Program-made: the position numbers and the translations under genes
Notes under the pieces: model-generated
Told to the model about the DNA's origin: nothing
The model's input: the letters and a program-made list of their open reading frames with translations, nothing else
The model's database searches: none
Shown here: in pieces, positions 12,371 through 27,741 of the stretch
Layout of the letters: the number at the start of each line of letters is the position of its first letter
Numbering within the stretch: the first letter of the stretch is position 1
Origin: Lachnospiraceae bacterium
GTDB lineage: Bacteria; Bacillota; Clostridia; Lachnospirales; Lachnospiraceae
Assembly: GCA_017473115.1 (NCBI GenBank)
Contig: JAFUNC010000012.1
Location: forward strand, 1-64,000
Reading direction: 5' to 3'
Length of the DNA: 64,000 bases

Positions 12371-12643
12371 ATGTTTCGTTTATGGGTAAAAATTATAAAA
12401 GAAAATCATTTGCTGAAAGAAACCGTAGTAGACGACGGTTCGGACAAAACCCGAACCCATAAAATTTTTGACGGTTTGGAAGAAGCGTGTATACAATTTG
12501 ATGTATGTAAACCAATCTGGCTCGACTCCACCATTGCGGACTTTAAACGATTAAGCAAAGCACGTTTTACCGCAGATAATTTTATCGAGCCCATTGATTT
12601 TGATTATATGGAAATTCAGGTTCTGGAGGAAGATTTTCTATAA
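12371..12643 (+). CDS. Small conserved hypothetical protein
   Basis: 90 residues, beginning MFRLWVKI. It mixes alpha and beta elements and has no membrane segment, signal peptide or known motif. The start follows AAAGGA by nine bases and fits the promoter upstream. I have the impression of a short protein family common in Clostridia, but cannot name it. Its stop codon overlaps that of spoVT, which runs the other way, so the two transcripts must overlap at their 3' ends. Confidence 0.6.
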   Translation: MFRLWVKIIKENHLLKETVVDDGSDKTRTHKIFDGLEEACIQFDVCKPIWLDSTIADFKRLSKARFTADNFIEPIDFDYMEIQVLEEDFL

Positions 12644-13180
12644 CTCCATTTGTTTTCCGAGAAAAGAGGCTGCAGCAAGTACCAGTTTGCGCTCTACTTC
12701 TCCTAAACCTTCTTTTTCATCTGCAGATAACAGAAATACTGCACCCACAACGTCTCCTTCGCTGATAATCGGTGACATCACCTGCCAATTACATTCCTTT
12801 TCGTCCTCTGCAAGCACAACAAACGACTTATCATTCTTGCCGGCCATAATGCCTTCACGTTTTTCCATTTTACGTTCTACTTCTTTACTGATATGCTTAT
12901 TTAATAATGTCTTCATACCTCCGGAAACTGCAATGTAGCGGTCTCTATCCGCGATTACGGCCACTTTACCGGACACCTGAGAAAGGCTGTCTGCATACTG
13001 CTTGGCAAATCCGTTCATCTCCCCGATGGAAGAATATTTTTTTAAGATAATTTCACCCTCCCTGTCGGTAAAAATTTCCAGCGGGTCACTTTCCCTGATT
13101 CTTAACGTACGACGAATTTCTTTTGGAATTACAATTCGTCCCAAATCATCTATTCTTCTCACAATCCCTGTTGCTTTCAT
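12638..13180 (-). CDS. spoVT: AbrB/SpoVT-type transcription regulator
   Basis: 180 residues from the second of two adjacent ATGs, chosen because GGAG lies five bases upstream. Residues 1-50 are a swapped-hairpin AbrB DNA-binding domain (TGIVRRIDDLGRIVIPKEIR), and 55-180 form a GAF-like domain, the SpoVT layout. In Bacillus, SpoVT tunes late forespore gene expression; the ligand of its GAF domain is unknown. The gene supports a spore-forming ancestry but does not prove this strain sporulates. It ends by overlapping the converging gene by six bases, leaving no room for a terminator between them. Confidence 0.88.
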   Translation of the reverse strand: MKATGIVRRIDDLGRIVIPKEIRRTLRIRESDPLEIFTDREGEIILKKYSSIGEMNGFAKQYADSLSQVSGKVAVIADRDRYIAVSGGMKTLLNKHISKEVERKMEKREGIMAGKNDKSFVVLAEDEKECNWQVMSPIISEGDVVGAVFLLSADEKEGLGEVERKLVLAAASFLGKQMEL

Positions 13181-13302
13181 CATTTCTCCTTTCATGGGGA
13201 AATTATTTCTTGCGCAAATAAAAATTCCACCATTTACATTTTCTAGTTCGTTTCTAGTATCTGTAAACAGTGGAATTTTATTCTAAAATCCAATTTTAAA
13301 TT

Positions 13303-13863
13303 TTATTTATTTCTCTGTGCAAGATATGCTGCTCTACCATCTTCGTAAAGGTTCTTTCCTTCGCTGTCAATAATAACAACCAAAGGCATATCTTCTACAT
13401 AAAGTTTTCTTAACGCTTCTGCGCCAAGATCTTCGTATGCAATCAGTTCGCACTTCTTAATACATTTCGCAAGTAATGCACCCGCGCCACCGATAGCACC
13501 AAAGTATACGCCATTGTATTTCTTCATTGCTTCAATTACTTCAGGAAGACGTGCGCCCTTACCAATCATACCTCTTGCACCAACTGACATCATAGTAGGC
13601 GCATAAGCGTCCATACGGCCGCTGGTAGTAGGACCTGCAGAACCGATTACCTGACCGGGCTTTGCAGGAGTAGGTCCTACGTAGTAGATGGTTGCATCTG
13701 TAGGATCCATGGGAAGGGGTTCGCCCTTAGCAAGTGCTTCACACATTCTCTTGTGACCTGCATCACGTGATGTGTAAATGGTACCTGTTAAATAAACAGT
13801 ATCACCTGCATGTAATGTTTTAGCCAATTCTTCTGTTAAAGGTAATGTAATATGCTTCTCCAT
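13303..13863 (-). CDS. Class I fumarate hydratase, beta subunit
   Basis: 186 residues matching the C-terminal half of iron-sulfur fumarases, with the conserved GSAGPTTSGRMD and AIGGAGALLAKCI stretches. With the alpha subunit it hydrates fumarate or dehydrates malate. It is the last gene of the block and overlaps the alpha gene by one base (TAATG), with a perfect GGAGGTGA ribosome site inside the preceding gene, so the two are translated together. The same family includes tartrate dehydratases, but the neighbouring fumarate reductase and malate dehydrogenase favour fumarase. Confidence 0.88.
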   Translation of the reverse strand: MEKHITLPLTEELAKTLHAGDTVYLTGTIYTSRDAGHKRMCEALAKGEPLPMDPTDATIYYVGPTPAKPGQVIGSAGPTTSGRMDAYAPTMMSVGARGMIGKGARLPEVIEAMKKYNGVYFGAIGGAGALLAKCIKKCELIAYEDLGAEALRKLYVEDMPLVVIIDSEGKNLYEDGRAAYLAQRNK

Positions 13864-14705
13864 TAGATCACCTCCGATTTATGACGGGTTACATGGCAGT
13901 TAATGTTGATTGCACAAGGCATACCTGCAATGTGTGTGGGTAATGTTTCAATGTTAAGACCGATAGCGGTTGTTCTTCCGCCAAAGCCCTGAGGTCCGAT
14001 ACCAAGTTCATTGATCTTTTCAAGCATTTCTTTTTCAAGGTCTGCATAGTAAGGATCGGGATTTTCTGAATCAATAGGACGCATCAACGCTTTCTTTGCA
14101 AGCAATGCAGCCTTATCAAATGTACCACCGATACCAACGCCTACAACCATGGGAGGGCAAGGGTTGGGTCCTGCTGTTTCAACAGTTTCAATGATAAAAT
14201 CCTTAATTCCTTCAATACCGTGAGAAGGCTTAAACATTCTGATTGCACTCATGTTTTCACTACCGAAGCCCTTAGGACCTACAGTAATTTTAACATTCTC
14301 GCCGGGAACGATTTCGGTATAGATCATAGCAGGTGTATTGTCACCTGTGTTACCGCGTCTTACCGGATCTTTTACAACGGATTTTCTTAAATATCCCTTG
14401 TCATAACCGCGACGTACACCTTCGTTGATTGCGTCTGTCAAGTCGCCTCCTACAAAATGTACATCCTGGCCAATCTCTAAGAATACGCAAGCCATACCTG
14501 TATCCTGGCAAATGGGCACATTCTCATTGTCAGCGATTTCAAAGTTTTCAATGATGTTGTCTAAAACGCCTTTGGCGATTTCACCATCTTCACAAGCACG
14601 GCAATTCTTGATTGCACATTTTACATCTTCAGGAAGATGTGTGTTTGCGTCGATACAAAGTTTTTCAACAACGTCAGTTACATTACTTACGTTAATTTCG
14701 CGCAT
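13863..14705 (-). CDS. Class I fumarate hydratase, alpha subunit
   Basis: 280 residues, the N-terminal half of oxygen-sensitive [4Fe-4S] fumarases. Conserved elements include PICQDTGMACVFL, RGNTGDNTPA, GPKGFGSENMS and NPCPPMVVGVGIGG; the cysteines in these motifs would hold the catalytic cluster. In this pathway it would run from malate to fumarate. A GGAG-type site precedes the ATG. An inverted repeat (GCATTGCA/TGCAATGC, about 14739-14766) lies between it and the transporter gene upstream and may act as a partial terminator or RNA stabiliser. Confidence 0.9.
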   Translation of the reverse strand: MREINVSNVTDVVEKLCIDANTHLPEDVKCAIKNCRACEDGEIAKGVLDNIIENFEIADNENVPICQDTGMACVFLEIGQDVHFVGGDLTDAINEGVRRGYDKGYLRKSVVKDPVRRGNTGDNTPAMIYTEIVPGENVKITVGPKGFGSENMSAIRMFKPSHGIEGIKDFIIETVETAGPNPCPPMVVGVGIGGTFDKAALLAKKALMRPIDSENPDPYYADLEKEMLEKINELGIGPQGFGGRTTAIGLNIETLPTHIAGMPCAININCHVTRHKSEVI

Positions 14706-14773
14706 AGTTTTTCTCCTTTTTAAAATTAATTAATCGGGGCATTGCACATTCAAAAAATTGCAATGCTCGATAG

Positions 14774-16030
14774 TTAGAATAAGATAATCAGGAACTGTGA
14801 CACAAGAACTACTGAGATTAATGCAATAGGGTATGTAGCTGCATATGCTGCTGCAACATCTTCTGTTCCTGCTGTGTTAATTAATGTTCCAAGCGCAGGT
14901 GTACTTGTCATACCGCCTGTGATAGAACCAAGGTTGTTGAGAAGACTTAACTTCACAACATATTTTGCAAAAAGGAAACCAAGAATCATCGGTACGATTG
15001 TCATGATAACACCATATACAAAGTACAATACGTGGAATTCTGCAACGAATTCAGCACCACCCGGGATACCTGCACCGATAAGGAATAACATAAGACCTAA
15101 CTCACGGAATACCTTAAGTGTTGTTTCAGGAGGCATAAAACTGATTTTACCGATTCTTCCGAAATGTCCGAATACAAGTGACATCAAAAGACATCCGCCT
15201 GTAGTTGTCAAAGCAAATGTTGTTCCGCTTAATCCCTGTGCACTCAAAGGTACCTTAATCATACCAACAAAAATACCGCATACTGCTGCAAGTGCAAAAG
15301 GAGCAATACCGAAACCGTCCAGTTCAATTAACTTACCATCATATTTCTTTGCTTCGCCATCAGAAGCCTGAACAAGTTTTGCTCTTTCTTCTTCCATATT
15401 AGCCTTCATAAACTTCGGCATAAGCTGTACAAAGAGTACAACACCGATAACACCGAACAAATATGCAATACCATGACCTACGGATACGATACCTTCCAAA
15501 GAAGGATCTACAGTAGCCTTCGCTGCCGAGAACGCAGGTGTTGATGTTAACGAACCTGAAAGAAGACCAACAATCATAGCTGTCATTTCATCGTGAGGTA
15601 CATCCGGCTGAAGCCATCTGCCCAAAAAGATACATCCGATTGCAGAAAGACCGCCACCAATGATAACAACAAGACCTAATGCAACATATGATTTAAAGTT
15701 TTTCTTCATATTTCCGAAAAATTTAGGTCCGGCAATAAAGCCTACAGAAGTTACAAAAAGAATCAAACCAAGGTTTTCAACAATTTTAAGCGCATTTTCT
15801 GCATAATTTACAGCAGTTCCGTCCGCCATTTTTACGGTAAGTTGGTTGCACAAAGGTTCATAGAAAAAGCATCCGAAAAGGAGTGCTACGATGAATACAC
15901 CTGCTGTACCCAAGTTAACGCCTTTAATAGAAATACGACCAAGTGCGTAACCTAAAAAGGTAATAATTAAAAGACTAAACATTAAAAATGTGATTCCGGT
16001 AATGGGAATAACACCGCCAAAAAGTGACAT
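14774..16030 (-). CDS. AspT/YidE-family (AAEx) transporter, possible succinate exporter
   Basis: 418 residues, about 10-12 membrane helices in two related halves. Each half has the family signature, GSLTSTPAF near residue 160 and GGMTSTPAL near 385. The start at 16030 is chosen because AGGAAGGA lies just before it. Relatives are the aspartate:alanine exchanger AspT and the Corynebacterium succinate exporter SucE1. Unlike those of about 540 residues, this protein has no RCK/TrkA_C domains between the halves, only a short charged loop. Its place between fumarase and fumarate reductase genes suggests export of succinate or exchange of C4-dicarboxylates; the substrate is inferred. Confidence 0.72.
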   Translation of the reverse strand: MSLFGGVIPITGITFLMFSLLIITFLGYALGRISIKGVNLGTAGVFIVALLFGCFFYEPLCNQLTVKMADGTAVNYAENALKIVENLGLILFVTSVGFIAGPKFFGNMKKNFKSYVALGLVVIIGGGLSAIGCIFLGRWLQPDVPHDEMTAMIVGLLSGSLTSTPAFSAAKATVDPSLEGIVSVGHGIAYLFGVIGVVLFVQLMPKFMKANMEEERAKLVQASDGEAKKYDGKLIELDGFGIAPFALAAVCGIFVGMIKVPLSAQGLSGTTFALTTTGGCLLMSLVFGHFGRIGKISFMPPETTLKVFRELGLMLFLIGAGIPGGAEFVAEFHVLYFVYGVIMTIVPMILGFLFAKYVVKLSLLNNLGSITGGMTSTPALGTLINTAGTEDVAAAYAATYPIALISVVLVSQFLIILF

Positions 16031-16143
16031 AATTTTTTCCTTCCTCATTTCATATATTTACGCATTGCGGGGCGAAAACGTTTTTCACGCCTTCGCCCGA
16101 CAAAAACATACATTATTTTTTAACCACGGCACACGTCCGATTT

Positions 16144-17745
16144 TTATCTTTCGTGACGGGCATATTTGGGAAGAAGCAAAGGTGATACATCATTTGTTTC
16201 AATGCCTGCTGCCTTTAATTCTTCTGCATATGCTGCAACATGGTCAATATTCATGGTACCCAACTCAACAGTCTTAGCCTTAGCTGCTGCAGCCTTACCT
16301 GCATTACGGCCGAATACAATGATGTCAAGTAATGAATTACCCATCAAACGGTTTCTTCCGTGGATACCTCCAACCGCTTCACCTGCTACAAGCAAGTTAT
16401 CGATTGCCTTGGTAAATCCTTCGCCGCCGATTTCCAAACCACCATTCTGGTAGTGGAGTGTAGGGTAAATCAAAATGGGTTCTTTTCTCATATCGATGTC
16501 GTAGTTTAAGTACATACGAAGCATCGCAGGAATTCTCTTTTCGATGGTTCCGGGTCCGCCGATCATTTCAATCATGGGAGTATCCAACCATACACCGCTT
16601 CCGAGAGGTGTGGTTACACCCTTACCTCTGTCAGAGCATTCACGAATGATAGATGCTGCTGAAACGTCACGTGTCTCAAGGGGATGCATAAATGCTTCAC
16701 CATCCACGTTAACAAGCATTGCGCCAAGAGAACGAACCTTCTCTGTTACCAATGCACCGAAAATCTGTGCAGGGTAAGCAACACCTGTAGGGTGATACTG
16801 GATTGTATCCTGGTATAAAAGGGGTGCACCTGCACGGTATCCCAATACCAAACCGTCAGCAGTAGCGCCGTAGTGGTTTGATGTAGGGAAGTTCTGGTAG
16901 TGAAGACGACCTGCACCACCGGTTGCGATAACTACGGTTTTAGCCTTAGCTACTAAGTAATCGCCGGTTTCCATGTTGAGGAGAACTGCACCTGCAATCT
17001 GTCCCTTCTCATCTTTGATTAATTCAACTGCTGAAGTAAATTCAACAACGGGAATCTGACGGTTGATTACTTCGTCACGAAGTGTACGCATGATTTCCGC
17101 ACCTGAGTAGTCCTTACAAGCATGCATACGCTTTCTTGAAGTACCACCACCGTGTGTAGTAACCATTCTTCCGTCTTCGTCCTTATCGAACATAACGCCT
17201 AATTTATTTAACCACTGGATTGCATCGGGCGCTTCCATAACAAGGCGTCTTAAAAGTTCGGGTCTTGCAGCAAAGTGTCCGCCACCAAAAGCATCAAGAT
17301 AGTGCTGAACGGGTGAATCGTTCTCTTTATCTGCAGCCTGGATACCGCCTTCTGCCATCATGGTGTTGGCATCACCGATACGAAGTTTTGTTACGATCAT
17401 AACGTTTGCACCTGCTTCGTGTGCTTCGATTGCTGCAGAAGAACCTGCACCACCACCACCAATAACGAGTACGTCTACGTCGTAATCAACTTTATTTAAA
17501 TCAACCTTGTCTGTTAAAAGACGGCTGTTTGAGTGAAGAAGGTGTCCTAACTCTGTAGGAACCTTCTGACCCTTGTTGGGTCCGATTTTGATTTCTACAA
17601 ATCCATCTTCTCTATAGTCAGGATGGTAAGCTTTCAGAAGGGTTTCCTTTTCCTCAGCGGTCATACGTCTGGGTTCGGTTTTCATACGTTCTGCTCTTGT
17701 AGCTTCCACCTTTTTAATGGATTCCTGCATTTCTGCTGTAAACAT
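16144..17745 (-). CDS. frdA: Soluble fumarate reductase flavoprotein subunit
   Basis: 533 residues. After an unusual 85-residue N-terminal extension comes an FAD domain (GGGGAG, 96-101). Residues corresponding to the E. coli FrdA active site are all visible: His318 in YHPTG, Arg359 in TRDVS, His431 in HYQNGG and Arg466 in RNRLMGNS. The covalent FAD histidine of FrdA (HTVAAEGG) is replaced by Asn127 (NTMMAEGG), so FAD should be non-covalent. The C-terminal helical domain of classical FrdA is mostly missing. No membrane anchor subunit is encoded nearby. It should reduce fumarate to succinate with electrons from FrdB. Confidence 0.87.
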   Translation of the reverse strand: MFTAEMQESIKKVEATRAERMKTEPRRMTAEEKETLLKAYHPDYREDGFVEIKIGPNKGQKVPTELGHLLHSNSRLLTDKVDLNKVDYDVDVLVIGGGGAGSSAAIEAHEAGANVMIVTKLRIGDANTMMAEGGIQAADKENDSPVQHYLDAFGGGHFAARPELLRRLVMEAPDAIQWLNKLGVMFDKDEDGRMVTTHGGGTSRKRMHACKDYSGAEIMRTLRDEVINRQIPVVEFTSAVELIKDEKGQIAGAVLLNMETGDYLVAKAKTVVIATGGAGRLHYQNFPTSNHYGATADGLVLGYRAGAPLLYQDTIQYHPTGVAYPAQIFGALVTEKVRSLGAMLVNVDGEAFMHPLETRDVSAASIIRECSDRGKGVTTPLGSGVWLDTPMIEMIGGPGTIEKRIPAMLRMYLNYDIDMRKEPILIYPTLHYQNGGLEIGGEGFTKAIDNLLVAGEAVGGIHGRNRLMGNSLLDIIVFGRNAGKAAAAKAKTVELGTMNIDHVAAYAEELKAAGIETNDVSPLLLPKYARHER

Positions 17746-17757
17746 ATTTATCCCTCC

Positions 17758-18432
17758 TTATTTCTCGATTTCTCTTGTGTTGTATAATTCCTTCATCTCT
17801 GTAATGGGCTTCTGCATAATCTGTTCGATTAATTCATCATAAGCACCACTGTTGATTTCCTCAACACGGTTTGCCAAATGCTCTGTTTCGGGAGCAATGT
17901 ACTTACCGGTGAGACGTCTTGCCAAAAGACCAACCATAGGATGAGAAATACCTGCGGGACATCTTGTTGCACAGCATCCACAACTTACACAGTCAAATGA
18001 TTCTTCAGCACACTTCTCAAATTCGCCTCTCTGAGCATATGCAATGTACTGCATAACATTTAAGTCCTGTGTACAAGCCTTTGTACAAGCGTTACATCCG
18101 ATACAACTGTAGATTTCAGGATAAAGTTCCATCATAATCTGCTGTGTAGGTCTGATTTCGTTAATATCATAAGTTCTCTTGTCAGTAGGGAAGAAGGGAA
18201 TGCTTGCTACGTACATACCTTCCTGAACCTGTGTCTGACATGCAAGACAAGTTTTTAATTCGTTCTTACCTTTAATTCTGTAAATAGTTGCGCATGCACC
18301 GCAGAAACCGTGACGGCAGCCACATCCTCTGTTCAAGGTGTAGCCTGCATATTCCATAGCTGTCATGATTGTTAAATCTGCAGGTACGCTGTATTTCTTA
18401 CCAAAAAAGTATACATTTACCATATTTTCCAT
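17758..18432 (-). CDS. frdB: Fumarate reductase iron-sulfur subunit
   Basis: 224 residues. An N-terminal plant-type [2Fe-2S] domain uses the cysteines of CRHGFCGAC (39-47) and CLAC (62-65). A C-terminal domain has two four-cysteine motifs, CIGCNACTKAC (110-120) and CVSCGCCATRCP (148-159). In classical FrdB the last cluster is a [3Fe-4S] site that touches the quinone; here the full four-cysteine set predicts [4Fe-4S], matching the absence of a membrane anchor. It lacks the HdrB-like CCG domain fused to methanogen TfrB, but a separate HdrB is encoded in the operon. It ends 12 bases before frdA. Confidence 0.88.
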   Translation of the reverse strand: MENMVNVYFFGKKYSVPADLTIMTAMEYAGYTLNRGCGCRHGFCGACATIYRIKGKNELKTCLACQTQVQEGMYVASIPFFPTDKRTYDINEIRPTQQIMMELYPEIYSCIGCNACTKACTQDLNVMQYIAYAQRGEFEKCAEESFDCVSCGCCATRCPAGISHPMVGLLARRLTGKYIAPETEHLANRVEEINSGAYDELIEQIMQKPITEMKELYNTREIEK

Positions 18433-18470
18433 TTTGGAATACCAGTCCTTTCGTATTTTATAAAAGCCTC

Positions 18471-19325
18471 TTAATATTCGTTAGGCAGCTCGTCAATCTC
18501 GTCGAAACGGAATACGGGGCCGTCCTTACATACATATTTAGAACCAATGTTACAACGTCCACACTTACCGATACCGCACTTCATACGAAGTTCGAAAGTA
18601 GTGTAAATCTGCTCATCCTGGAAGCCTAATTCCTTAAGACCCTGAAGAACAAACTTAATCATGATAGGCGGTCCGCAGACAAGAACTGTTTTATCTGTAG
18701 AGAATTCCAGTTCTTTTAAGTATGCAGGTACAAAACCTACATGTCCGTCCCAGCCTTCCTGCTCACGGTCAATGGTCAAGTGTACATTCACACCTTCCGT
18801 CTTCATCCACAATTCCTGGATTTCTTTTAACTGAACCAGATCATCTGCGGAACGTGAGCCGTAAAGGATATCGATGGTTCCGTAATTCGCTCTGTTATCA
18901 ATTGCATAATTGATTACGGAACGAAGAGGCGCAAGACCGATACCACCGGCGATGAATAAAAGGTTCTTGCCTTTTAATTCGGTTTCAACCGGGAAATGAT
19001 TTCCGTAAGGTCCTCTTACGGTAATTTCATCACCAACCTGGAGGCTGTGAAGATAATCTGTAAGCTGACCGCATTTTTTGATACTGAACTCCTGGAATTC
19101 CTTATTCGTAGGAGATGATGTAATAGAGAACATTGCCTCACTTACGCCGGGAGCACATAACATTGCACACTGACCGGGCATATGCTCAAATAACTTGCCG
19201 CCTTCGGGAGCGTTTACACGGAAAGTTTTAACATCCGGTGTCTCCTGACGGATATCTGTAATTACATCAACCTTAGGAATCAAAGTGTCCAGTTCATAAT
19301 TGGTATGACAATTGCATTCACACAT
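18471..19325 (-). CDS. FlxA-like FAD/NAD(H)-binding oxidoreductase subunit
   Basis: 284 residues of the ferredoxin-reductase superfamily, close to AsrB, PyrK and hydrogenase gamma subunits. It has an FAD-binding barrel (about 10-115, with the motif SITSSP for flavin), an NAD-binding domain (FIAGGIGLAPLRS near 125) and a C-terminal [2Fe-2S] site (CGIGKCGRCNIG, about 251-262). It should take hydride from NADH and pass single electrons to its partners. Together with the next three genes it makes a FlxABCD set as described for Desulfovibrio. Its ATG overlaps the end of the FlxB gene. Confidence 0.85.
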   Translation of the reverse strand: MCECNCHTNYELDTLIPKVDVITDIRQETPDVKTFRVNAPEGGKLFEHMPGQCAMLCAPGVSEAMFSITSSPTNKEFQEFSIKKCGQLTDYLHSLQVGDEITVRGPYGNHFPVETELKGKNLLFIAGGIGLAPLRSVINYAIDNRANYGTIDILYGSRSADDLVQLKEIQELWMKTEGVNVHLTIDREQEGWDGHVGFVPAYLKELEFSTDKTVLVCGPPIMIKFVLQGLKELGFQDEQIYTTFELRMKCGIGKCGRCNIGSKYVCKDGPVFRFDEIDELPNEY

Positions 19326-20356
19326 TATTCATTACCTCCCTGATTCTCAAAAGCTTTGATTACTTTTACAATGTTTAAGGATGCAGGACACTTATCAACG
19401 CAACGTCCGCAACCTACACATGAGTACATACCGTCATTGTTTGCAGGGAAGTATACTAACTTATGCATAAATCTCTGACGGAATCTCTGCATCTGGCTAT
19501 TACGGTTATTACCATGAGCCATCATTGTAAAATCGGAATACATACATGAATCCCAGCAACGATAACGCTGTACGCCGTGACCTGTATCGTAATCCTTAAT
19601 ATCATAGCACTGGCAGGTAGGACATACGAATGTACATGTACCGCATGCTAAACAAGGCTTATAAAGTTCTTCCCAAACGGGTGATTCGAACTTTTCCATA
19701 AGAACGTCGCCGTTCCAGCCTTCTAATGAAAGGTTAGAGTAAGGAAGTTTTTCAACGATAGCGCGAATTGCTGCCTTCTCTTCTTCTACCTTAGTTTCAT
19801 CTGCATCTACCAATAAGCCTTCAACAGCCTTGGTCAATGCTTCACCCTTTTCTGTAATTGCCTTCCAGTAAAGTTCGCCGTCAATCATCCATGTCGCAAC
19901 ATCAGCAACAGGGTCGGCACAGTCTGTACCGAACACCTTACAGAAACAGGTTTCTTCGGGTTCGTGACAAGCAAGTGCTACGATAGTACCGTGTGCACGT
20001 CTTGCCGCATAAAAAGTATCTACGGGTTCAGCAAGGAATACCTTGTCTAAAACCTCAACCCCCTTCACGTCACAAGCCTTCATACCGAATACAACAAAGT
20101 TCTGTGACTGTAATTCTTCGGGTGTAATTTTAATTTTCTTATCTTCCTTTGTACAGGTGTACAAGTTTTCGCTCTGGGGGAAGAAAGCATCTTTAGCAGA
20201 TTTTACGGTTTTTAATGTGTCCAAATCCACTTCTGCTTCTTCTGTCCAATATGCAAAATTTGTCTGGTTTGCAACTTTTACGGGAAGATATAATTCATTG
20301 GTTTCCGCAATCTTGGAGAATAATGCGGAAAGATTTTCTTTTGCTATCTTAAACAT
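19325..20356 (-). CDS. FlxB-like iron-sulfur electron-transfer subunit (AsrA-like)
   Basis: 343 residues. The N-terminal 220 residues match the AsrA/hydrogenase beta-type domain (FGMKACDVKGVEVLD), with extra cysteines in CHEPEETCFC that probably bind another cluster. The C terminus has two ferredoxin motifs, CLACGTCTFVCPTCQC and CVGCGRCVDKCPAS. It should carry electrons between the FAD subunit and the rest of the complex. It overlaps FlxA by one base and is followed by it directly, which implies fixed stoichiometry. Confidence 0.82.
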   Translation of the reverse strand: MFKIAKENLSALFSKIAETNELYLPVKVANQTNFAYWTEEAEVDLDTLKTVKSAKDAFFPQSENLYTCTKEDKKIKITPEELQSQNFVVFGMKACDVKGVEVLDKVFLAEPVDTFYAARRAHGTIVALACHEPEETCFCKVFGTDCADPVADVATWMIDGELYWKAITEKGEALTKAVEGLLVDADETKVEEEKAAIRAIVEKLPYSNLSLEGWNGDVLMEKFESPVWEELYKPCLACGTCTFVCPTCQCYDIKDYDTGHGVQRYRCWDSCMYSDFTMMAHGNNRNSQMQRFRQRFMHKLVYFPANNDGMYSCVGCGRCVDKCPASLNIVKVIKAFENQGGNE

Positions 20357-20359
20357 ACA

Positions 20360-21334
20360 TTATCTCCTTTCTGTTACGATGCTGGGCTCACAATCTTCAA
20401 ATGTGAAGTTTGTAAGAGGTCCTCTTGCTTCGCTGTCTGCACCTGCCTGGAACTCACCATAAAATTCATTAATATCCTTAATGAACTTACGGTTAAACAA
20501 GTGAAGGGGGATACCCTGAGGACAAACACGGCTGCACTCGCCACAGTCTGTACATCTTCCCGCTACGTGGAATGCACGGATAATGTGGAACATCTTCTCT
20601 TCAAAAGAATCCACATTTGCCTTCTGTGCGGTATCGAACTTAGTACTGTCAAATACACACTTACGGCAACTACATGCAGGACAGACATTTCTGCAGGCAT
20701 TACAACGGATACATTTGCTTAATTCTTTCTGGAAGAATGCAAACTTTTCTTCAGGACTCATTGCTTCGATTTTTTCAACTTCCGCAAATCTTTCTGCGTC
20801 CTTGGTATCCTTTGATTCGCCGATGATTTCATCGTAAATCATATGTTCCTTACCCTTACATACGTGACATCTCTCAAGCATTGCGTCTGCATATGCGCAG
20901 GTCTTTTCTCCGTAAAGAGTCTGGATTGTCAATGTGTCACAAGCGTCAGACATTTCTGCACCGGAGATACTCTGGATACCCTTAATGCCCATTTCTTTTA
21001 ACTTGTCAACATTTAACTTACCCTTGCAGCCTACACCTACAATGTAAGCCTTATCACGGTCTACACGATGTTCCTTAATCAACTGATTAAAACTGTATGT
21101 ATCACAAGGCTTTAAACATACCATGGTCTTGCCTTCCAACTTGGAAGCCTCGATCATGTATTTGCTAAGGTTCGCACCGCAAAATCCGTTATATACGAAA
21201 TTGTCTAATTCTTCAGCGCTAGTGAAGTAAGCCGGTTCAGGATTGTAAGGCAAATCACCGGCTTTCCAGCCAAGTACACGAACTACGGTACCGTCGGCAA
21301 GAAGTTCTTTTGCGCGGTTCACTAATTCTTGCAT
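20360..21334 (-). CDS. FlxC-like iron-sulfur subunit (FrhB-like)
   Basis: 324 residues with a dehydrogenase-beta-like core (residues about 70-200; motifs CLKPCDTYSF and GVGCKGKL) and many cysteines: CHVC near 159, CIRCNACRNVCPACSCRKC (about 213-231) and CTDCGECSRVCPQG (about 265-278). The similarity is to coenzyme F420 hydrogenase beta-type and Flx iron-sulfur proteins. It should be an electron wire. GGAGG lies six bases before the ATG, within the end of the MvhD-like gene, which it overlaps by 13 bases. Confidence 0.8.
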   Translation of the reverse strand: MQELVNRAKELLADGTVVRVLGWKAGDLPYNPEPAYFTSAEELDNFVYNGFCGANLSKYMIEASKLEGKTMVCLKPCDTYSFNQLIKEHRVDRDKAYIVGVGCKGKLNVDKLKEMGIKGIQSISGAEMSDACDTLTIQTLYGEKTCAYADAMLERCHVCKGKEHMIYDEIIGESKDTKDAERFAEVEKIEAMSPEEKFAFFQKELSKCIRCNACRNVCPACSCRKCVFDSTKFDTAQKANVDSFEEKMFHIIRAFHVAGRCTDCGECSRVCPQGIPLHLFNRKFIKDINEFYGEFQAGADSEARGPLTNFTFEDCEPSIVTERR

Positions 21335-21759
21335 CTTAAATCCTCCAATCTTACGTTTTCACCAAGAGAGTGGATTTTCTCTACGAATTCATTCATGGTT
21401 GTAGAGAACTTCACACCTTCTGCGGCAGATACCCATTCAACACGGGTACGGCCGTTTTCCACACCGATATAATCAAGCATGGAGAATAATAATGTCATAC
21501 GTCTTCTTGCGTAGTAATTACCTGTGCTGTAATGGCAGTCTCCGGGGTGGCAACCACACATGATAACGCCATCTGCACCCTTCTGGAATGCACGAAGGAT
21601 GAACATAGGATTTACACGGCATGAACACGGTACACGAATAATTTTAACATCAGCAGGATATGCCAAACGGCTGCTACCTGCAAGGTCAGCACCTGCATAA
21701 CTACACCAGTTACAGCAGAATGCAACAATTTTAGGTCTAAATTCTTTTTCTATCGACAT
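21322..21759 (-). CDS. mvhD: MvhD-like (FlxD) [2Fe-2S] subunit
   Basis: 145 residues from the ATG at 21759, where GGAGGTGG is nine bases upstream; a longer in-frame reading toward 21849 would only extend into hdrA. It has the MvhD cysteine pattern: CCNWCSYAGAD, CSCRVNP and CGCHPGDCHY. In methanogens MvhD links the electron donor to HdrA; in Flx-Hdr complexes FlxD does the same. It starts inside the last codons of hdrA (10-base overlap). Confidence 0.88.
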   Translation of the reverse strand: MSIEKEFRPKIVAFCCNWCSYAGADLAGSSRLAYPADVKIIRVPCSCRVNPMFILRAFQKGADGVIMCGCHPGDCHYSTGNYYARRRMTLLFSMLDYIGVENGRTRVEWVSAAEGVKFSTTMNEFVEKIHSLGENVRLEDLRCKN

Positions 21760-23738
21760 ATCGCATCCACCTCCGCAAGAATCTGTCTGTTTGAGAATCC
21801 CTGAAGGTCCATAGCACCGGAAGGACAAACAACGGTACAAGCACCACAACCCTGACAGAGTGCGTTGTTAACAACTGCAATTCTTCTGTCTTCACGGATA
21901 CCGTGGTCATTTACCTGTTTCACTTCATAAGTGATTGCACCGTAAGGACATACATTAGCACAGGTTGAACATCCGTTACACATAAGTTCGTCAGCCTTTG
22001 CTGTACAAGGGTTGGTCATCAGCTTGTCTTTTGCAAGAAGGCCGATTGCTTTAACCGCAGCAGCACCTGCTTGAGCAACGGTTTCGGGAATATCCTTAGG
22101 TCCCTGACATACACCTGATAAGAATACACCTGCTGTAGGAGATTCTACAGGACGAAGTTTGGGATGTGCCTCTGTAAGGAAGTTATTGGTATCAATACTT
22201 GCTGTAAGCATTGTTGCAATCTTTCTTACGGAAGGGTCGGGCTCGATTGCAGTTGCGAGAACTACCATATCAGCCTCTTTTAAAATCTGCTTATTGTCGA
22301 TTAAGTCTGCGCCCTGTACCAAAAGTTTACCATTGGGAAGAGGAGCAACCTTACCAACCTGACCCTTAATGTAATTTACACCGTATTCTTCAACTGCTCT
22401 TCTGTAGAACTCGTCGAAGTTCTTACCGGGTGTACGAACGTCAATGTAAAATACAGTAACGTTAACATCAGGATACTTATCACGAATCAACATTGCATGC
22501 TTAGCAGTATACATACAGCAGATCTTAGAGCAGTAACTCTTACCTCTGTTGTCTGCACAACGGCTGCCTACACACTGGATGAATACCATCTCCTTGGGAG
22601 CCTTACCGTCAGAAAGACGTTCAAGGTGACCCTTTGTAGGACCTGCAGCATTCATGATACGTTCTAATTCAAGAGAAGTGATAACGTCCTTGCTCTGGCT
22701 GTATGCATATTCATCATACTTATCAAGTTTGATGGTATCAAAACCGGTAGCAACTACGATTGCACCATACTTCTCTGTAATAATTTCATCCTGCTGAGCG
22801 TAATCGATAGCGCCCGCCTGACAAACCTTTTCACATAAACCGCACTTACCGGTCTTGAACTTGATACAAGCATCACGATCAATAACGGGCACGTTCGGAA
22901 TAGCCTGTGCAAAAGGAGTGTAGATTGCACTTCTTGTGTTAAGTCCGCGGTTGAATTCGCTGGGTGCCTTCTTGGAAGGACATTTTTCCTGGCAAACGCC
23001 ACAACCGGTACACTTATTCATATCTACGCTTCTTGCTTTTTTACGGATATCAACAGTAAAATCACCAACGAAACCTGTAACCTTTTCTACTTCGCTATAT
23101 GTATAGATATTAATCTTTTCATGCGCAGAAGCTTCCACCATCTTCGGTGTAAGGATACATGCTGAACAGTCAAGGGTAGGGAATGTCTTGTCTAACTGTG
23201 ACATTCTGCCACCGATACTGGGTGTCTTTTCTACGATATCTACTTCATAGCCTGCGTCTGCAATATCAATTGCAGTCTGGATACCGGCGATACCACCACC
23301 GATAACCAATGCACGCTTGGTTACACGGCTCTCGCCGGGCTGAAGAGGAGCATTTAAGTTAACCTTAGCGATTGCTGCTCTAGCAAGAATAACCGCCTTC
23401 TTGGTTGCCTCTTCCATATCTTTATGTATCCATGAACAATGTTCACGAATATTCGCAATCTCTACCATATAAGGATTTACACCCGCACGTTCTGCAGCCT
23501 TACGGAAAGTTGCTTCATGCATACGGGGTGAACAGGAACATACAACGATACCTGTTAATCCTTTTTCTTTTACTGCTTCGAGAATCTTTGCCTGACCTGC
23601 TTCAGAACACATATACTGGTAATCTTCCGCATGAACAACGCCGGGCTCTAACAGTGCCATTTCAACCACTTTTTTAACATCTACCGTTGCAGCAATATTA
23701 CTACCGCAATGACAGACAAATACACCTATTCTCTGCAC
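21750..23738 (-). CDS. hdrA: Heterodisulfide reductase subunit A (bifurcating flavoprotein)
   Basis: 662 residues, the full-length form. N-terminal cysteine domain (CHCGSN 9-14; CSCSPRMHE 67-75), a thioredoxin-reductase-like FAD domain (GGGIAG 147-152), the HdrA-specific LDCSACILTP (189-198), an inserted ferredoxin domain (CTGCGVCQEKCP near 243 and CGLCEKVC near 305) and a C-terminal ferredoxin domain (CNGCSTCANVCP near 598; CQGCGACTVVCP near 635). In methanogens HdrA splits electron pairs between a low-potential ferredoxin and HdrBC. All parts are present, so bifurcation is possible, though not proven. Confidence 0.93.
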   Translation of the reverse strand: MQRIGVFVCHCGSNIAATVDVKKVVEMALLEPGVVHAEDYQYMCSEAGQAKILEAVKEKGLTGIVVCSCSPRMHEATFRKAAERAGVNPYMVEIANIREHCSWIHKDMEEATKKAVILARAAIAKVNLNAPLQPGESRVTKRALVIGGGIAGIQTAIDIADAGYEVDIVEKTPSIGGRMSQLDKTFPTLDCSACILTPKMVEASAHEKINIYTYSEVEKVTGFVGDFTVDIRKKARSVDMNKCTGCGVCQEKCPSKKAPSEFNRGLNTRSAIYTPFAQAIPNVPVIDRDACIKFKTGKCGLCEKVCQAGAIDYAQQDEIITEKYGAIVVATGFDTIKLDKYDEYAYSQSKDVITSLELERIMNAAGPTKGHLERLSDGKAPKEMVFIQCVGSRCADNRGKSYCSKICCMYTAKHAMLIRDKYPDVNVTVFYIDVRTPGKNFDEFYRRAVEEYGVNYIKGQVGKVAPLPNGKLLVQGADLIDNKQILKEADMVVLATAIEPDPSVRKIATMLTASIDTNNFLTEAHPKLRPVESPTAGVFLSGVCQGPKDIPETVAQAGAAAVKAIGLLAKDKLMTNPCTAKADELMCNGCSTCANVCPYGAITYEVKQVNDHGIREDRRIAVVNNALCQGCGACTVVCPSGAMDLQGFSNRQILAEVDAICR

Positions 23739-23743
23739 GTTTC

Positions 23744-24133
23744 TTACCTCCTGTATCTTCTGAATGCACTAACCAATAACTGCTGAGGCAGATCCGGATC
23801 AAGAAGTTCCGGAATTTCATTGGGTGACAGATAATCCTGTCCCTTCTGACGCACAACAACCTGTCTTGCAGCATCGATTAACTTGCCGGGCTTCACATCT
23901 CTGGGGCAACGTTCCACGCATGCAAAACATGAAAGGCATTTCCATAATGATTTTGAATTCACGAGAGATTCAACATCTTCGTTTACTACATAAGATACAA
24001 ACTGATGAGGTTTGATGTCCATCTCGTTGTAAGAAGGACAAGATGCGGAACACTTACCGCACTTCATACACTTAAGAGGATTCACGCCGCTGATTTCTTT
24101 GATTAATTCAGCCTGCTTTTTAGCCGTATTCAT
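23744..24133 (-). CDS. hdrC: Heterodisulfide reductase subunit C
   Basis: 129 residues, soluble, with two [4Fe-4S] motifs: CMKCGKCSASCP (about 22-33) and CLSCFACVERCP (about 65-76). It relays electrons from HdrA to HdrB. The gene overlaps hdrB by one base and ends five bases before hdrA, so the three subunits are translationally linked. Confidence 0.92.
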   Translation of the reverse strand: MNTAKKQAELIKEISGVNPLKCMKCGKCSASCPSYNEMDIKPHQFVSYVVNEDVESLVNSKSLWKCLSCFACVERCPRDVKPGKLIDAARQVVVRQKGQDYLSPNEIPELLDPDLPQQLLVSAFRRYRR

Positions 24134-24927
24134 TACTTAGCCACCTCCTCTTTTACGCCTAAAGCCTCTGCAAGCAACTCTGTAAAATAAACTACAGGAA
24201 GCTTGTCATTGCCATTTTTCTTTAAATTGTAGAGACACAAAGGACAGGCTGTGATAAGCATCTCTGCTCCCATACCGTCTGCGCTGTCCATAATGCGTTC
24301 GCACATAGACTTAGACATGTCTTTTTCTTTTAAAGAGATATAACCGCCGCAGCATTCATTTCTGTAAGGATATACTACGGGAGTTGCGCCGAGCGCACGG
24401 ATAAAATCTTCGATGATGGTAGGATTTTCAGGATTATCAAATTCCAAAATCTTACCGGGGCGAAGAAGAAGGCAGCCGTAATATGCACCAATCTTCTTAT
24501 CTGTAAGCGGATTCACCACTTTTTCTTTAATCTTGTCGAATCCTACGCGGTCACGGAGCACTTCCAAAAAGTGAAGCACTTCGGTTTCACCTGCATAAGG
24601 TTCTTCCAACTGCATATAGTTGTTGGCTCTGGTACGAATATCATCCACATTCTTCATATCGTCATTTACGCGCTTAATAACATGATGACATGCAGAACAT
24701 AAGGTAACCAGATCCTGGCCCTTTTCTTTTGCCTCATTCAAGGCACGAACTGAAGAAAGCTTGCTTGCGATTTCGTCAGAACCCAAAGGGTATACCCCAC
24801 CACAACACTGCCAGTTCTCGATTTCTTCCAGTTCGAATCCCAAAGCCTTAGCTGAAACTCTTGCATATGCATCCAAGTCTTTTGCCTTGGTTCTAAGGGT
24901 ACATCCCGGATAGTAACTGTACTTCAT
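24133..24927 (-). CDS. hdrB: Heterodisulfide reductase subunit B
   Basis: 264 residues from the ATG at 24927, preceded by AGAAAGGA; the longer in-frame reading lacks a ribosome site. It has two cysteine-rich CCG domains (CCGG at 41-44 with CSACHH, and CCGG near 192 with CPLC), which in HdrB hold the two non-cubane [4Fe-4S] clusters that reduce a disulfide. No CoM/CoB chemistry is expected here, so the acceptor is either another thiol or, as the operon suggests, the FrdB clusters. In methanogen TfrB the same CCG domain is fused to FrdB. Confidence 0.9.
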   Translation of the reverse strand: MKYSYYPGCTLRTKAKDLDAYARVSAKALGFELEEIENWQCCGGVYPLGSDEIASKLSSVRALNEAKEKGQDLVTLCSACHHVIKRVNDDMKNVDDIRTRANNYMQLEEPYAGETEVLHFLEVLRDRVGFDKIKEKVVNPLTDKKIGAYYGCLLLRPGKILEFDNPENPTIIEDFIRALGATPVVYPYRNECCGGYISLKEKDMSKSMCERIMDSADGMGAEMLITACPLCLYNLKKNGNDKLPVVYFTELLAEALGVKEEVAK

Positions 24928-24959
24928 AGTTCTATTGTCCTTTCTCCATAGTTTAATAA

Positions 24960-25015
24960 ACAATTCAGAGCCATACATACGCAAAGAAAAAATCTTGCGA
25001 ATGACTCTGAATTGT
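24960..25015 (-). terminator. Long hairpin between mdh and hdrB
   Basis: ACAATTCAGAG and CTCTGAATTGT (24960-24970 with 25005-25015) enclose a second inner stem (CGCAAG/CTTTGCG). On the minus strand only three T follow directly. It may partly terminate mdh transcripts and set a lower level for the hdr-flx-frd genes, or stabilise the mdh RNA. Confidence 0.5.
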
Positions 25016-25030
25016 ACATATATTTATCTT

Positions 25031-25978
25031 TTATAATTCAATCTGAGCAATAATTTCCTTAAGTGCATCGGCACTTGCCTTTAACTGTGCGATTTCGTCT
25101 TCAGTTAACTTAACAGGCACTTTACCCTGGATACCGTTAGGTCCAACTAAAGTTAATGTACTTACACATACATCTTCGATGCCATATTCGCCGTGCATTA
25201 ATGAAGACACGGTTGCCATAGACTCATCTGAAGCCATTAAGATACCGCAAAGTGCACATACTGATGCAGAAACTGCGTAGAAAGTAGCACCCTTGTTAGC
25301 AATAACCTGTCCGCCGGATTTTCTTACATATGTAATCATGGCTTCCTTGTCAACAGGCTTTACATCCTTGTCAATGTTCTTTACAAGTTCTACATAGTCA
25401 TCTGCAGGTACACCGCATACGCTTGCGATAGACCAAGGAATGAAAGATGTGTCGCCATGCTCACCAAACACATATGCATGAATGTTCTTCTGTGCAAGGC
25501 TGTAGTGTTCAGAAAGTCCGCAACGAAGACGAGCGGTATCAAGGATAGTACCTGAACCGATAATCTGGTTTTCGGGAAGTCCTGAAATCTTTGTGAATAC
25601 ATAAGTCATAATGTCAACAGGGTTGCTTACGATAATGTAAAGTGCATCAGGCGCATTCTTTACGATTTCGGGTGTAATGCTCTTTAAAATGTTAACATTT
25701 GTCTGTGTAAGCTCAATTCTTGTCTGACCGGGCTTACGAGCGATACCTGAAGTAATGATAACGATATCAGAATCCTTAGCATCAACATATTCACCAGCGG
25801 TGATCTTGATGGGATCACGGAAACAGGTACCCTGTTCGATATCCATTACTTCTCCTTCTACTTTCTGCTTGTTGATATCGATCAAAACGATTTCTGAAGC
25901 GATATCCTGCTGAGAAAGTGTGTACGCGATTGTGGAACCAACACTACCGGCTCCGATGATTGTAATTTTTCTGCTCAT
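25031..25978 (-). CDS. mdh: LDH/MDH-family dehydrogenase, probably malate dehydrogenase
   Basis: 315 residues with an NAD-binding GAGSVGS (9-15) and catalytic His174 in FGEHGD, substrate Arg87 and Arg150. The residue that sets specificity in this family (position 102 in lactate dehydrogenase numbering, Gln in LDH and Arg in MDH) is Arg81 here, in ARKPGQTR. That favours oxaloacetate over pyruvate. Being the first gene before the hdr-flx-frd-fumarase block also fits a malate dehydrogenase. Overall similarity is LDH-like, so automatic annotation may call it lactate dehydrogenase. AAAGGAG lies 9 bases upstream of the ATG. Confidence 0.75.
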   Translation of the reverse strand: MSRKITIIGAGSVGSTIAYTLSQQDIASEIVLIDINKQKVEGEVMDIEQGTCFRDPIKITAGEYVDAKDSDIVIITSGIARKPGQTRIELTQTNVNILKSITPEIVKNAPDALYIIVSNPVDIMTYVFTKISGLPENQIIGSGTILDTARLRCGLSEHYSLAQKNIHAYVFGEHGDTSFIPWSIASVCGVPADDYVELVKNIDKDVKPVDKEAMITYVRKSGGQVIANKGATFYAVSASVCALCGILMASDESMATVSSLMHGEYGIEDVCVSTLTLVGPNGIQGKVPVKLTEDEIAQLKASADALKEIIAQIEL

Positions 25979-26201
25979 ACTGATAAACTCCTTTGTTTAT
26001 TTTTTAACAATCTAAGTGTCCGTATATAGGATATCATAATAAAAGCCTTAAAACAAGGATTTTTTCAAGGTATAACGACGATTTTTAGCAAAACTTTGCC
26101 GCTGTTTTTTGTGCATTTTTGAGTTAGCATTTGCTTACTTTGTTTTATCCGCATATTATGGTAAAATTACTTTAATCTGATTCACGTAAATTGTGAAATA
26201 T

Positions 26202-26234
26202 AAAAAGTTGCAGAACTTTAAGTCCTGCAACTTT
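26202..26234 (-). terminator. Terminator of nagB
   Basis: AAAGTTGCAG/CTGCAACTTT stem with an 11-base loop, followed by five T on the minus strand; nine bases after the nagB stop. Confidence 0.8.
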
Positions 26235-26242
26235 AATCTTTA

Positions 26243-26974: not shown

Positions 26975-27177
26975 AATTTTCAAGCCCCTTTACGTTAGAT
27001 TTTGAACTCCGTAAACCGAAGTCCAATTGTGCTTTGCACATTTTTTTACAAGGGAATTATACACCCATCTTTTTTTCAAAACAACTACTTTTTTTCGACA
27101 AATTTTTCATTTTTTTACATTTTTTTCTTCTGTCACACTTACAAATGTCTCGAATTACCCGAATCTCTTTTCCAAAA

Positions 27178-27206
27178 TAAAAAAGGCGAAAGTTTCCTTT
27201 CGCCTT
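27178..27206 (-). terminator. Terminator of the DUF4190 gene
   Basis: AAGGCGAAAG/CTTTCGCCTT with a 4-base loop (27183-27206) and a T-rich tail on the minus strand. Confidence 0.85.
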
Positions 27207-27216
27207 CTCGCTTTTA

Positions 27217-27651: not shown

Positions 27652-27741
27652 GGCAATCTCCTTTATCTTTTGTTTTCTCTCATTATAAAAAAATACTTCT
27701 CAACAGTCAATTACTTTTACTGTTGTAATTAGCATTTGTTT

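What the first reader, a model, noticed from the sequence alone, without database searches (positions are those of the whole stretch)
13303..25978. Operon joining a soluble fumarate reductase to a complete Flx-Hdr electron-transfer complex
Seen: 13 minus-strand genes with mostly overlapping ends encode MDH, HdrB, HdrC, HdrA, MvhD/FlxD, FlxC, FlxB, FlxA, FrdB, FrdA, a C4-type transporter and both fumarase subunits, with no quinone-binding membrane subunit. Known: Flx-Hdr complexes oxidise NADH and are thought to bifurcate electrons between ferredoxin and a disulfide; methanogen TfrAB is a fumarate reductase in which an FrdB part is fused to an HdrB part. Inference: here HdrB is separate, and HdrABC-FlxABCD feeds FrdAB, making an NADH-driven, possibly ferredoxin-reducing, soluble fumarate reductase that lets the cell conserve energy from oxaloacetate to succinate.
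Basis: partly seen in the sequence, partly recalled or inferred. Interest (0 to 1): 0.92.

Follow-up and report, generated by a model that had tools for sequence, protein, structure and literature searches.

The report
NADH-driven, possibly bifurcating, fumarate reductase operon
A gut bacterium carries one operon that joins a membrane-free fumarate reductase to a complete NADH-oxidising Hdr/Flx electron-transfer complex, probably so that making succinate also charges the cell's energy carrier ferredoxin; the idea is already in print for a related bacterium but has not been proven.

Summary
Thirteen minus-strand genes (13303-25978) encode MDH, HdrBCA, FlxDCBA, FrdBA, an AspT/YidE-type transporter and fumarase alpha/beta, with no membrane anchor. 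In the 80 nearest FrdA relatives hdrBCA-flxDCBA-frdBA is complete and in order in 57, and cut by a contig end in the other 23. Of 391 genomes of the class, 54 have this FrdB and all 54 have FlxC; 5 others have FlxC.

The same kind of operon, with the same bifurcation hypothesis, is already published for Pseudoclostridium thermosuccinogenes (PMC7282089, citing a 2019 preprint that I could not read). So this is a new member of a known, unproven kind.

What I add: in other classes the same FrdBA pair has different redox neighbours, and its Flx-Hdr linkage is not one clade and occurs in different gene orders. FrdB keeps two cubane-type [4Fe-4S] motifs, FrdA has Asn where the FAD-linking His would be, and HdrB keeps ten cluster cysteines. 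This favours NADH > Flx > HdrA > HdrC/B > FrdB > FrdA. Against obligate coupling: 17 of 38 out-of-class loci show no adjacent Hdr, and 4 of those 38 genomes gave no HdrB or FlxC match.

The parts
26204..26234 (-). terminator-like hairpin between nagB and mdh; likely upstream border of the operon
   Evidence: 14 pairs, T-rich tail
25031..25978 (-). malate dehydrogenase (LDH-like MDH; Arg at the substrate-specificity site)
24133..24927 (-). HdrB, two complete CCG motifs (ORF listed to 24984; start probably Met20)
23744..24133 (-). HdrC, two [4Fe-4S] motifs
21750..23738 (-). HdrA (HdrA2-like, FAD plus several Fe-S motifs), proposed bifurcation site
21322..21759 (-). FlxD/MvhD (PF02662; ORF listed to 21849, start probably Met31); HdrA and FlxD together cover most of the fused HdrA2 model
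20360..21334 (-). FlxC, Fe-S protein
19325..20356 (-). FlxB, ShyB/HydB/AsrA-like Fe-S subunit
18471..19325 (-). FlxA, FAD/NAD(P)H-binding subunit with [2Fe-2S] (DHODB-type)
17758..18432 (-). FrdB, [2Fe-2S] + 2x[4Fe-4S], no CCG domain, no hydrophobic helix
16144..17745 (-). FrdA, fumarate reductase flavoprotein with catalytic residues; Asn127 at the covalent-FAD His position; about 90-aa N-terminal extension; no C-terminal flavoprotein domain found
14774..16048 (-). AspT/YidE/YbjL-type transporter, likely C4-dicarboxylate/succinate handling (inferred)
13863..14705 (-). class I fumarase alpha subunit
13303..13863 (-). class I fumarase beta subunit

Best explanation
It is a reductive-branch operon (oxaloacetate to succinate) whose last step is a cytoplasmic NADH:fumarate reductase built from the Flx-Hdr complex and a special FrdBA pair. 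Shown by sequence: the genes, their cofactor motifs, the catalytic residues and the conserved linkage. Inferred: NADH is oxidised at FlxA; electrons pass through FlxB/C/D to the FAD of HdrA, which bifurcates them. One electron stream goes to ferredoxin. The other goes via HdrC and the HdrB clusters to FrdB and the FAD of FrdA, which reduces fumarate. Overall: 2 NADH + fumarate + 2 Fd(ox) -> 2 NAD+ + succinate + 2 Fd(red), about -49 to -33 kJ/mol with recalled potentials. Rnf, encoded elsewhere in the genome, could reoxidise ferredoxin and pump ions. Fumarate thus takes the place of the heterodisulfide as the high-potential acceptor.
For: Linkage: the nine-gene core is complete and in order in 57 of 80 related loci and cut by contig ends in the other 23; in 41 of 53 class loci, with 11 cut by contig ends and 1 permuted. 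Co-occurrence: FrdB in 54 of 391 genomes of the class, FlxC in all 54 and in 5 of the 337 others. Linked loci are not one clade on the FrdBA tree (p-AU 5.8e-11; 4 changes) and differ in gene order (hdrBCA-flxDCBA-frdBA; frdBA-hdrBCA-flxDCBA; hdrCBA-flxDCBA-frdBA). In 5 other loci only hdrC and hdrB were seen next to frdBA (one of them cut by contig ends), which points to HdrCB as the direct donor. HdrB keeps the ten CCG cysteines in 115 of 115 sequences. FrdB keeps C39, C44, C47 and C65 and the eight [4Fe-4S] cysteines in 172 of 172, and FrdA its four tested catalytic His/Arg residues in 173 of 173. HdrA and FlxD match positions 1-640 and 643-773 of the fused HdrA2 model. HdrB is the only CCG-domain protein found in the genome. 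Rnf C, D and G are present. No Sdh_cyt and no other full-length FrdA-like gene except NadB was found. In print: the operon of P. thermosuccinogenes rises about 4-fold at low CO2, and added H2 almost abolished its succinate in an older study cited there (PMC7282089).
Against: No biochemistry. In other classes FrdBA shows no adjacent Hdr in 17 of 38 loci, and 4 of those 38 genomes gave no HdrB or FlxC match, so FrdBA can work with other donors. HdrB keeps every disulfide-reductase cysteine, which it would not obviously need if it only passed electrons on. Bifurcation cannot be read from sequence. The published expression change was not significant for all subunits, and in the older study a lower redox potential (Na2S) had the opposite effect to H2, which the authors call confusing. 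The genome is 85% complete, so absences in it are weak.
Confidence: 0.66

Rival explanations
1. Indirect, thiol-mediated coupling: HdrB reduces a disulfide (small thiol or protein), and that thiol then feeds FrdAB, as in TfrAB or the DsrC model.
For: The ten CCG cysteines of HdrB are kept. PMC11636981 (passages) offers direct transfer, or transfer via ferredoxin and a DsrC-like protein, as alternatives.
Against: FrdB has no CCG domain through which TfrB takes thiol electrons (role recalled), and no thiol carrier gene was recognised in the operon. HdrCB sits directly beside frdBA in loci without adjacent HdrA or Flx.
Confidence: 0.12
2. Non-bifurcating NADH:fumarate reductase: Flx (and Hdr as a simple wire) passes both electrons to FrdB; no ferredoxin is reduced.
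For: NADH to fumarate alone is strongly exergonic (about -68 kJ/mol with recalled potentials), so bifurcation is not needed to drive it.
Against: The full HdrA with its Fe-S motifs and all of HdrB and HdrC are kept, which is costly if unused; the H2 effect in P. thermosuccinogenes fits ferredoxin coupling (PMC7282089), though the Na2S effect there does not.
Confidence: 0.12
3. Shared regulation only: Flx-Hdr serves another acceptor, and FrdAB takes electrons from a soluble donor such as ferredoxin, while the genes share one operon because both serve redox balance.
For: FrdBA shows no adjacent Hdr in 17 of 38 out-of-class loci, and 4 of those 38 genomes gave no HdrB or FlxC match. In six of seven fumarase-frdBA genomes hdrB and flxC lie together on another contig. 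Five genomes of the class have FlxC without FrdB.
Against: Linkage occurs on separate branches in different gene orders. In the class, FlxC without FrdB is rare (5 of 59), and 4 of these 5 are distant FlxC relatives (best match 90-125 bits; one more is in a 62% complete genome).
Confidence: 0.07
4. Quinone-linked fumarate reductase in which the HdrB-like protein is an SdhE-type anchor.
For: HdrB scores as high on the SdhE model as on HdrB (142.6 and 141.4 bits), though below both cut-offs. One UbiA-type prenyltransferase is in the genome; other quinone genes were not searched for.
Against: HdrC, HdrA and Flx are all beside it, no hydrophobic helix is seen in HdrB or FrdBA, there is no Sdh_cyt match, and FrdB has no [3Fe-4S] motif.
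Confidence: 0.03

Closest known systems
'Succinate operon' of Pseudoclostridium thermosuccinogenes (PMC7282089; Koendjbiharie & van Kranenburg 2019 preprint, title only seen)
   Same: Fumarate hydratase, Flx-Hdr (seven locus-tag steps), fumarate reductase and a putative transporter; the same proposal that succinate formation is coupled to ferredoxin reduction (passages and section 8).
   Different: In the window mdh opens the operon and fumarase follows the transporter. I did not compare sequences with that strain.
FlxABCD-HdrABC of Desulfovibrio vulgaris (Ramos et al. 2015; title seen in reference lists)
   Same: Same seven kinds of subunit.
   Different: There it is tied to ethanol metabolism (title) and a DsrC-type acceptor (recalled); here to FrdBA.
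TfrAB thiol:fumarate reductase of methanogens
   Same: FrdA scores highest on TfrA among NCBIfam models; FrdB and HdrB match parts of the first and last stretch of TfrB.
   Different: HdrB is a separate subunit within Flx-Hdr; scores are below the TfrA/TfrB cut-offs; no CCG domain on FrdB.
Hdr-Flx with TfrAB in the reductive TCA cluster of the Riftia symbiont (PMC11636981)
   Same: Same idea: Hdr-Flx passing NADH electrons to a fumarate reductase (passages).
   Different: Carbon fixation cluster with 2-oxoglutarate:ferredoxin oxidoreductase; its tfrAB did not share the expression pattern.
HdrA2B2C2 of Methanosarcina (PMC5296606; title and start of abstract in a search listing only; organism recalled)
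   Same: HdrA and FlxD match the fused HdrA2 model (790 and 176 bits).
   Different: Below the model cut-off (1100); donor and acceptor differ.

Membership tests
Flx-Hdr complex (FlxABCD-HdrABC) | All seven subunits with their domains (NAD/FAD flavoprotein, Fe-S subunits, FlpD, HdrA, HdrB, HdrC) | tested here: met
   PF00175/PF10418, PF17179, PF02662 (182.7 bits), HdrA2-like, CCG x2, Fer4
Flx-Hdr complex (FlxABCD-HdrABC) | HdrB with two complete CCG motifs for noncubane [4Fe-4S] clusters | tested here: met
   spacing; ten cysteines in 115 of 115
Flx-Hdr complex (FlxABCD-HdrABC) | NADH oxidation with flavin-based bifurcation to ferredoxin | not testable with these tools
   needs enzyme assay
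P. thermosuccinogenes type succinate operon | flx-hdr and frdAB clustered with fumarase and a transporter | tested here: met
   against the gene list in PMC7282089; order differs in part; transcription as one unit not tested
P. thermosuccinogenes type succinate operon | Sequence orthology to that strain's proteins | not tested
   named strain not fetched
TfrAB thiol:fumarate reductase | TfrB fusion of FrdB-like and CCG (HdrB-like) parts | tested here: not met
   FrdB has no CCG; TfrA 334.5 of 718 bits, TfrB 30.2 of 385 bits
Quinone-linked Sdh/Frd (complex II) | [3Fe-4S] centre in FrdB | tested here: not met
   C148, C151, C154 and C158 present in 172 of 172 (feature of complex II recalled)
Quinone-linked Sdh/Frd (complex II) | Histidine for covalent FAD | tested here: not met
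   alignment; Asn127 in 173 of 173
Quinone-linked Sdh/Frd (complex II) | Membrane anchor subunit | tested here: not met
   (genome 85% complete)
Fumarate reductase (catalytic function) | Substrate-binding and proton-transfer residues (His, Thr-Glu, Arg, His, Arg) | tested here: met
   H318, E335, R338, H431, R466 in 173 of 173; T334 in 172 of 173 (one Ser); roles recalled
SdhABE / methylmenaquinol:fumarate reductase | SdhE equivalog score | tested here: not met
   142.6 bits, cut-off 500
L-aspartate oxidase (NadB) | NadB equivalog score and nad context | tested here: not met
   below cut-offs; a separate NadB lies next to nadC
L-lactate dehydrogenase (for the mdh gene) | Gln at the substrate-specificity position | tested here: not met
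   Arg in 79 of 79 best hits, though LDH models are passed

The most novel reading that the evidence does not exclude
FrdBA is a portable, membrane-free fumarate reductase with FrdB as an all-purpose electron socket. On separate lineages of one phylum it has been wired to Flx-Hdr, to HdrCB alone, to a giant-HdrA complex, or to cytochrome modules. In the Hdr-linked versions fumarate replaces the heterodisulfide as the high-potential acceptor of an Hdr-type bifurcating machine, so the HdrB clusters serve as a wire and not as a disulfide-cleaving site.
Probability: 0.4. Interest if true: 0.75.

Novelty: new member of a known kind. Interest (0 to 1): 0.55.

Why it matters
If right, many gut Clostridia make succinate with a soluble enzyme that stores energy as reduced ferredoxin instead of through a quinone chain, which changes ATP budgets for succinate and propionate fermentation and for rumen and gut hydrogen balance. 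The varied partner modules found here give natural comparisons that make the open question (does Hdr feed Frd, directly or via thiols?) testable, and the survey names cultured strains that carry the operon.

Tried and rejected
Rejected: (1) a real second copy of the operon: contig C20 is a redundant piece of C11 (2 mismatches in 16,683 bases); the relative G019 shows the same kind of redundancy. (2) LDH for the first gene: Arg at the specificity site. (3) NadB for FrdA: a separate nadB next to nadC exists. (4) A membrane-bound Frd. (5) Internal promoters or terminators as evidence of separate transcription: promoter-like hits do not exceed shuffles (31 found, 35.6 expected) and terminator-like hits do so only slightly (17 found, 12.2 expected, sd 3.6).

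Led nowhere: structure prediction of FrdA and FrdB failed, so the N-terminal extension of FrdA and the FrdB-HdrB contact were not modelled. The 2019 preprint could not be read. Papers opened for passages that I did not use: PMC7174568, PMC6776011, PMC4149029, PMC5861303.

One search was read by eye for the 12 loci that its script did not mark complete. In one search I looked at 176 loci: FrdA was complete in 172 and FrdB in 171 (5 rows failed the length or end filter; 4 had no hit), plus the window; HdrB was taken from 114 loci plus the window (9 rows failed the filter; the rest had no hit). Of the 17 loci called 'no adjacent Hdr', L257, L269 and L290 show under 2.5 kb upstream of frdB and L256 and L284 little downstream, so a neighbour beyond the contig end is possible there. 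Of the 5 hdrCB loci, L265 is a 3.8-kb contig without frdA. Of the 11 giant-HdrA loci, hdrCBA is visible in 9 and cut off in L278 and L288. Only a few members of the contexts were scanned with Pfam; the rest were assigned by blast label or clustering. The tree used 71 rows and that used 56 (L274, a long branch, and 14 rows thinned out). Trees are quick ones without the mixture model; L280 and L291 are also flagged as long branches, and class E rows sit inside the canonical group with a long-branch warning. The one-clade test was done on groups named after the tree had been seen. The own genome is 85% complete.

Full report
OBSERVATION. The block 13303-25978 holds thirteen minus-strand genes in the order mdh, hdrB, hdrC, hdrA, flxD, flxC, flxB, flxA, frdB, frdA, transporter, fumarase alpha, fumarase beta (domains). 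Gaps are 95 nt at most and several genes overlap. A terminator-like hairpin lies between nagB and mdh. spoVT follows fumarase beta by 107 nt. By a crude hydropathy scan no protein of the block except the transporter has a clear hydrophobic helix. The copy on contig C20 is an assembly redundancy.

ANATOMY. FlxA has the FAD, NAD and [2Fe-2S] domains of a DHODB/sulfhydrogenase-gamma protein. FlxD is an MvhD/FlpD protein (182.7 bits). HdrA and FlxD match positions 1-640 and 643-773 of the 777-position fused HdrA2 model (790 and 176 bits, below its cut-off of 1100). HdrB has two CCG motifs (C28, C60/61, C96, C99 and C171, C211/212, C247, C250), kept in 115 of 115 sequences, and is the only CCG-domain protein found in the genome (its redundant contig aside). 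FrdB has a [2Fe-2S] motif and two CX2CX2CX3C motifs; C39, C44, C47, C65 and all eight [4Fe-4S] cysteines are kept in 172 of 172. Standard complex II has a [3Fe-4S] at the second site (recalled), so this FrdB looks like a soluble wire. FrdA aligns with fumarate reductases and succinate dehydrogenases from about residue 88 on. H318, E335, R338, H431 and R466 are kept in 173 of 173, T334 in 172 of 173, and the position of the FAD-linking His is Asn127 in 173 of 173. From recall, E. coli FrdA without that His still reduces fumarate but loses succinate oxidation; if that holds here, the enzyme would favour fumarate reduction (inference). No Succ_DH_flav_C domain was found in FrdA, and there is a conserved N-terminal extension of 85-94 residues in all contexts, of unknown function.

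MDH. The family models call it lactate dehydrogenase. The three solved LDHs shown have Gln at the specificity site; this protein and all other best MDH-like hits in the loci (79 of 79) have Arg, the malate type (rule recalled). With fumarase, mdh completes oxaloacetate to fumarate.

CONSERVATION IN THE CLASS. The best 80 FrdA relatives include Lachnospiraceae and Oscillospiraceae MAGs and isolates (Blautia glucerasea, Mordavella massiliensis, Dorea sp., Ohessyouella blattaphilus). Of 80 loci, 57 have hdrBCA-flxDCBA-frdBA complete on one strand; in the other 23 the series is cut within 179 bases of the contig end. Mdh at 55% identity or more is upstream in 39 of 54 loci long enough to tell (3 more weak, 12 none). 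Downstream (63 loci long enough): transporter-fumA-fumB 23, fumAB 21, fumAB-transporter 10, transporter alone 7, neither 2. In 391 genomes drawn from the class, FrdB is found in 54 and FlxC in 59, including all 54. Of the 5 FlxC-only genomes one is 62% complete and four have distant FlxC relatives. Of the 53 class loci fetched, 41 have the whole core, 11 are cut by contig ends and one (L182) has frdBA in front of hdrBCA-flxD. Fisher's test gives p about 6e-61, but genomes are related, so this is only descriptive. Within the window's genus strong FrdB matches are in 5 of 31 genomes, so the operon is patchy.

OUTSIDE THE CLASS. In 398 genomes of the phylum, 38 besides the own genome have FrdB, at 254-347 bits. 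Their loci fall into: full flx-hdr in 5 (four permuted, one hdrCBA-flxDCBA-frdBA); hdrC-hdrB only in 5 (one on a 3.8-kb contig); a giant HdrA-like protein and flxD in 11 (hdrCBA visible in 9; frames of 1053-1098 aa in seven loci and 1489 aa in L272); fumarase and no adjacent hdr seen in 7 (five with a malic-enzyme-type gene, one of them checked by Pfam; L257 and L269 cut upstream); no HdrB or FlxC match in the genome in 4 (a pyruvate-carboxylase-type gene in front of frdB in three, one checked by Pfam); Fe-S or cytochrome-type neighbours in 6 (Pfam in L261, L289, L290 and L292; L291 and L293 by likeness only). FlxC was found somewhere in 34 and HdrB in 33 of these 38 genomes, so in most of them a Flx-Hdr-like set may exist in addition; the genomes of the five hdrCB loci also have FlxC elsewhere. 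In the seven fumarase genomes flxC lies on other contigs, with hdrB about 4 kb away in six. Four genomes (G513, G516, G734, G814) matched neither. On the FrdBA tree flx-hdr linkage needs four changes, and holding the linked rows together is rejected (p-AU 5.8e-11; 3.2e-8 with L280 free; groups were named after a first tree was seen). Counts of changes cannot tell gain from loss, but the different gene orders mean that the link was kept or remade through rearrangement.

MECHANISM. Best reading: NADH > FlxA > FlxBC > FlxD > HdrA; there electrons split, one stream to ferredoxin, one via HdrC and HdrB to FrdB and FrdA. The hdrCB-frdBA loci suggest that HdrCB is the direct donor of FrdB. Energetics with recalled potentials: about -68 kJ/mol for NADH + fumarate and -49 or -33 kJ/mol with bifurcation to ferredoxin at -420 or -500 mV. 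RnfC and RnfD score well above their cut-offs and RnfG just under its cut-off (101.1 of 102 bits). Electron flow, bifurcation and complex formation are all inferred.

KNOWN WORK. PMC7282089 (passages, section 8) describes in P. thermosuccinogenes a 'succinate operon' with fumarate hydratase, the Flx-Hdr bifurcation complex, fumarate reductase and a putative succinate transporter. [quoted passage not shown] PMC11636981 (passages) proposes Hdr-Flx feeding thiol-fumarate reductase in the Riftia symbiont. My paper searches listed no paper whose title or abstract start describes the partner-swapping FrdBA family or an enzyme test of the complex; only held papers were searched, most hits were seen as listings, and the preprint may contain part of this.

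VERDICT. Observation confirmed; interpretation sound as a hypothesis but already in print; new member of a known, unproven kind, with the varied-partner pattern as the useful addition.

Noticed in passing
G000 contig C20 (L105) against window 12075-28757: Whole 16,683-base contig is a 99.99% copy of part of the window contig: redundant assembly piece that would inflate copy counts.
   Followed up: yes
window 4805-4922 (-): SAM riboswitch aptamer (Rfam RF00162, 68.2 bits).
   Followed up: no
window 55705-55754 (-): DUF3800-XI RNA (Rfam RF02975, 66.2 bits).
   Followed up: no
window 47559-48986 (-): 475-aa frame in which aminoacyl-tRNA hydrolase covers only residues 286-455; about 285 residues in front are unexplained (fusion or wrong start).
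   Followed up: no
window 12638-13195 (-): spoVT, a sporulation regulator, lies 107 nt behind the fumarase beta gene on the same strand.
   Followed up: no
L266, L270, L271: frdBA directly behind a pyruvate-carboxylase-type gene (Pfam for L266, clustering for the others) in genomes with no HdrB or FlxC match: another donor must exist.
   Followed up: partly
L261, L289-L293: The same FrdBA type beside FMN-binding Fe-S, NapC/NirT-like cytochrome c or cytochrome b561-Fe-S genes (Pfam in L261, L289, L290, L292; L291 by clustering and L293 by likeness only).
   Followed up: partly
L281 11732-14944 (-) and similar loci: Giant HdrA-like protein (1,070 aa, Pyr_redox_2 plus Fer4 domains) between hdrCBA and flxD-frdBA; nature of its electron donor unknown.
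   Followed up: no
window 37816-39312 (-): Tryptophanase/tyrosine phenol-lyase family protein that passes only the broad subfamily model.
   Followed up: no
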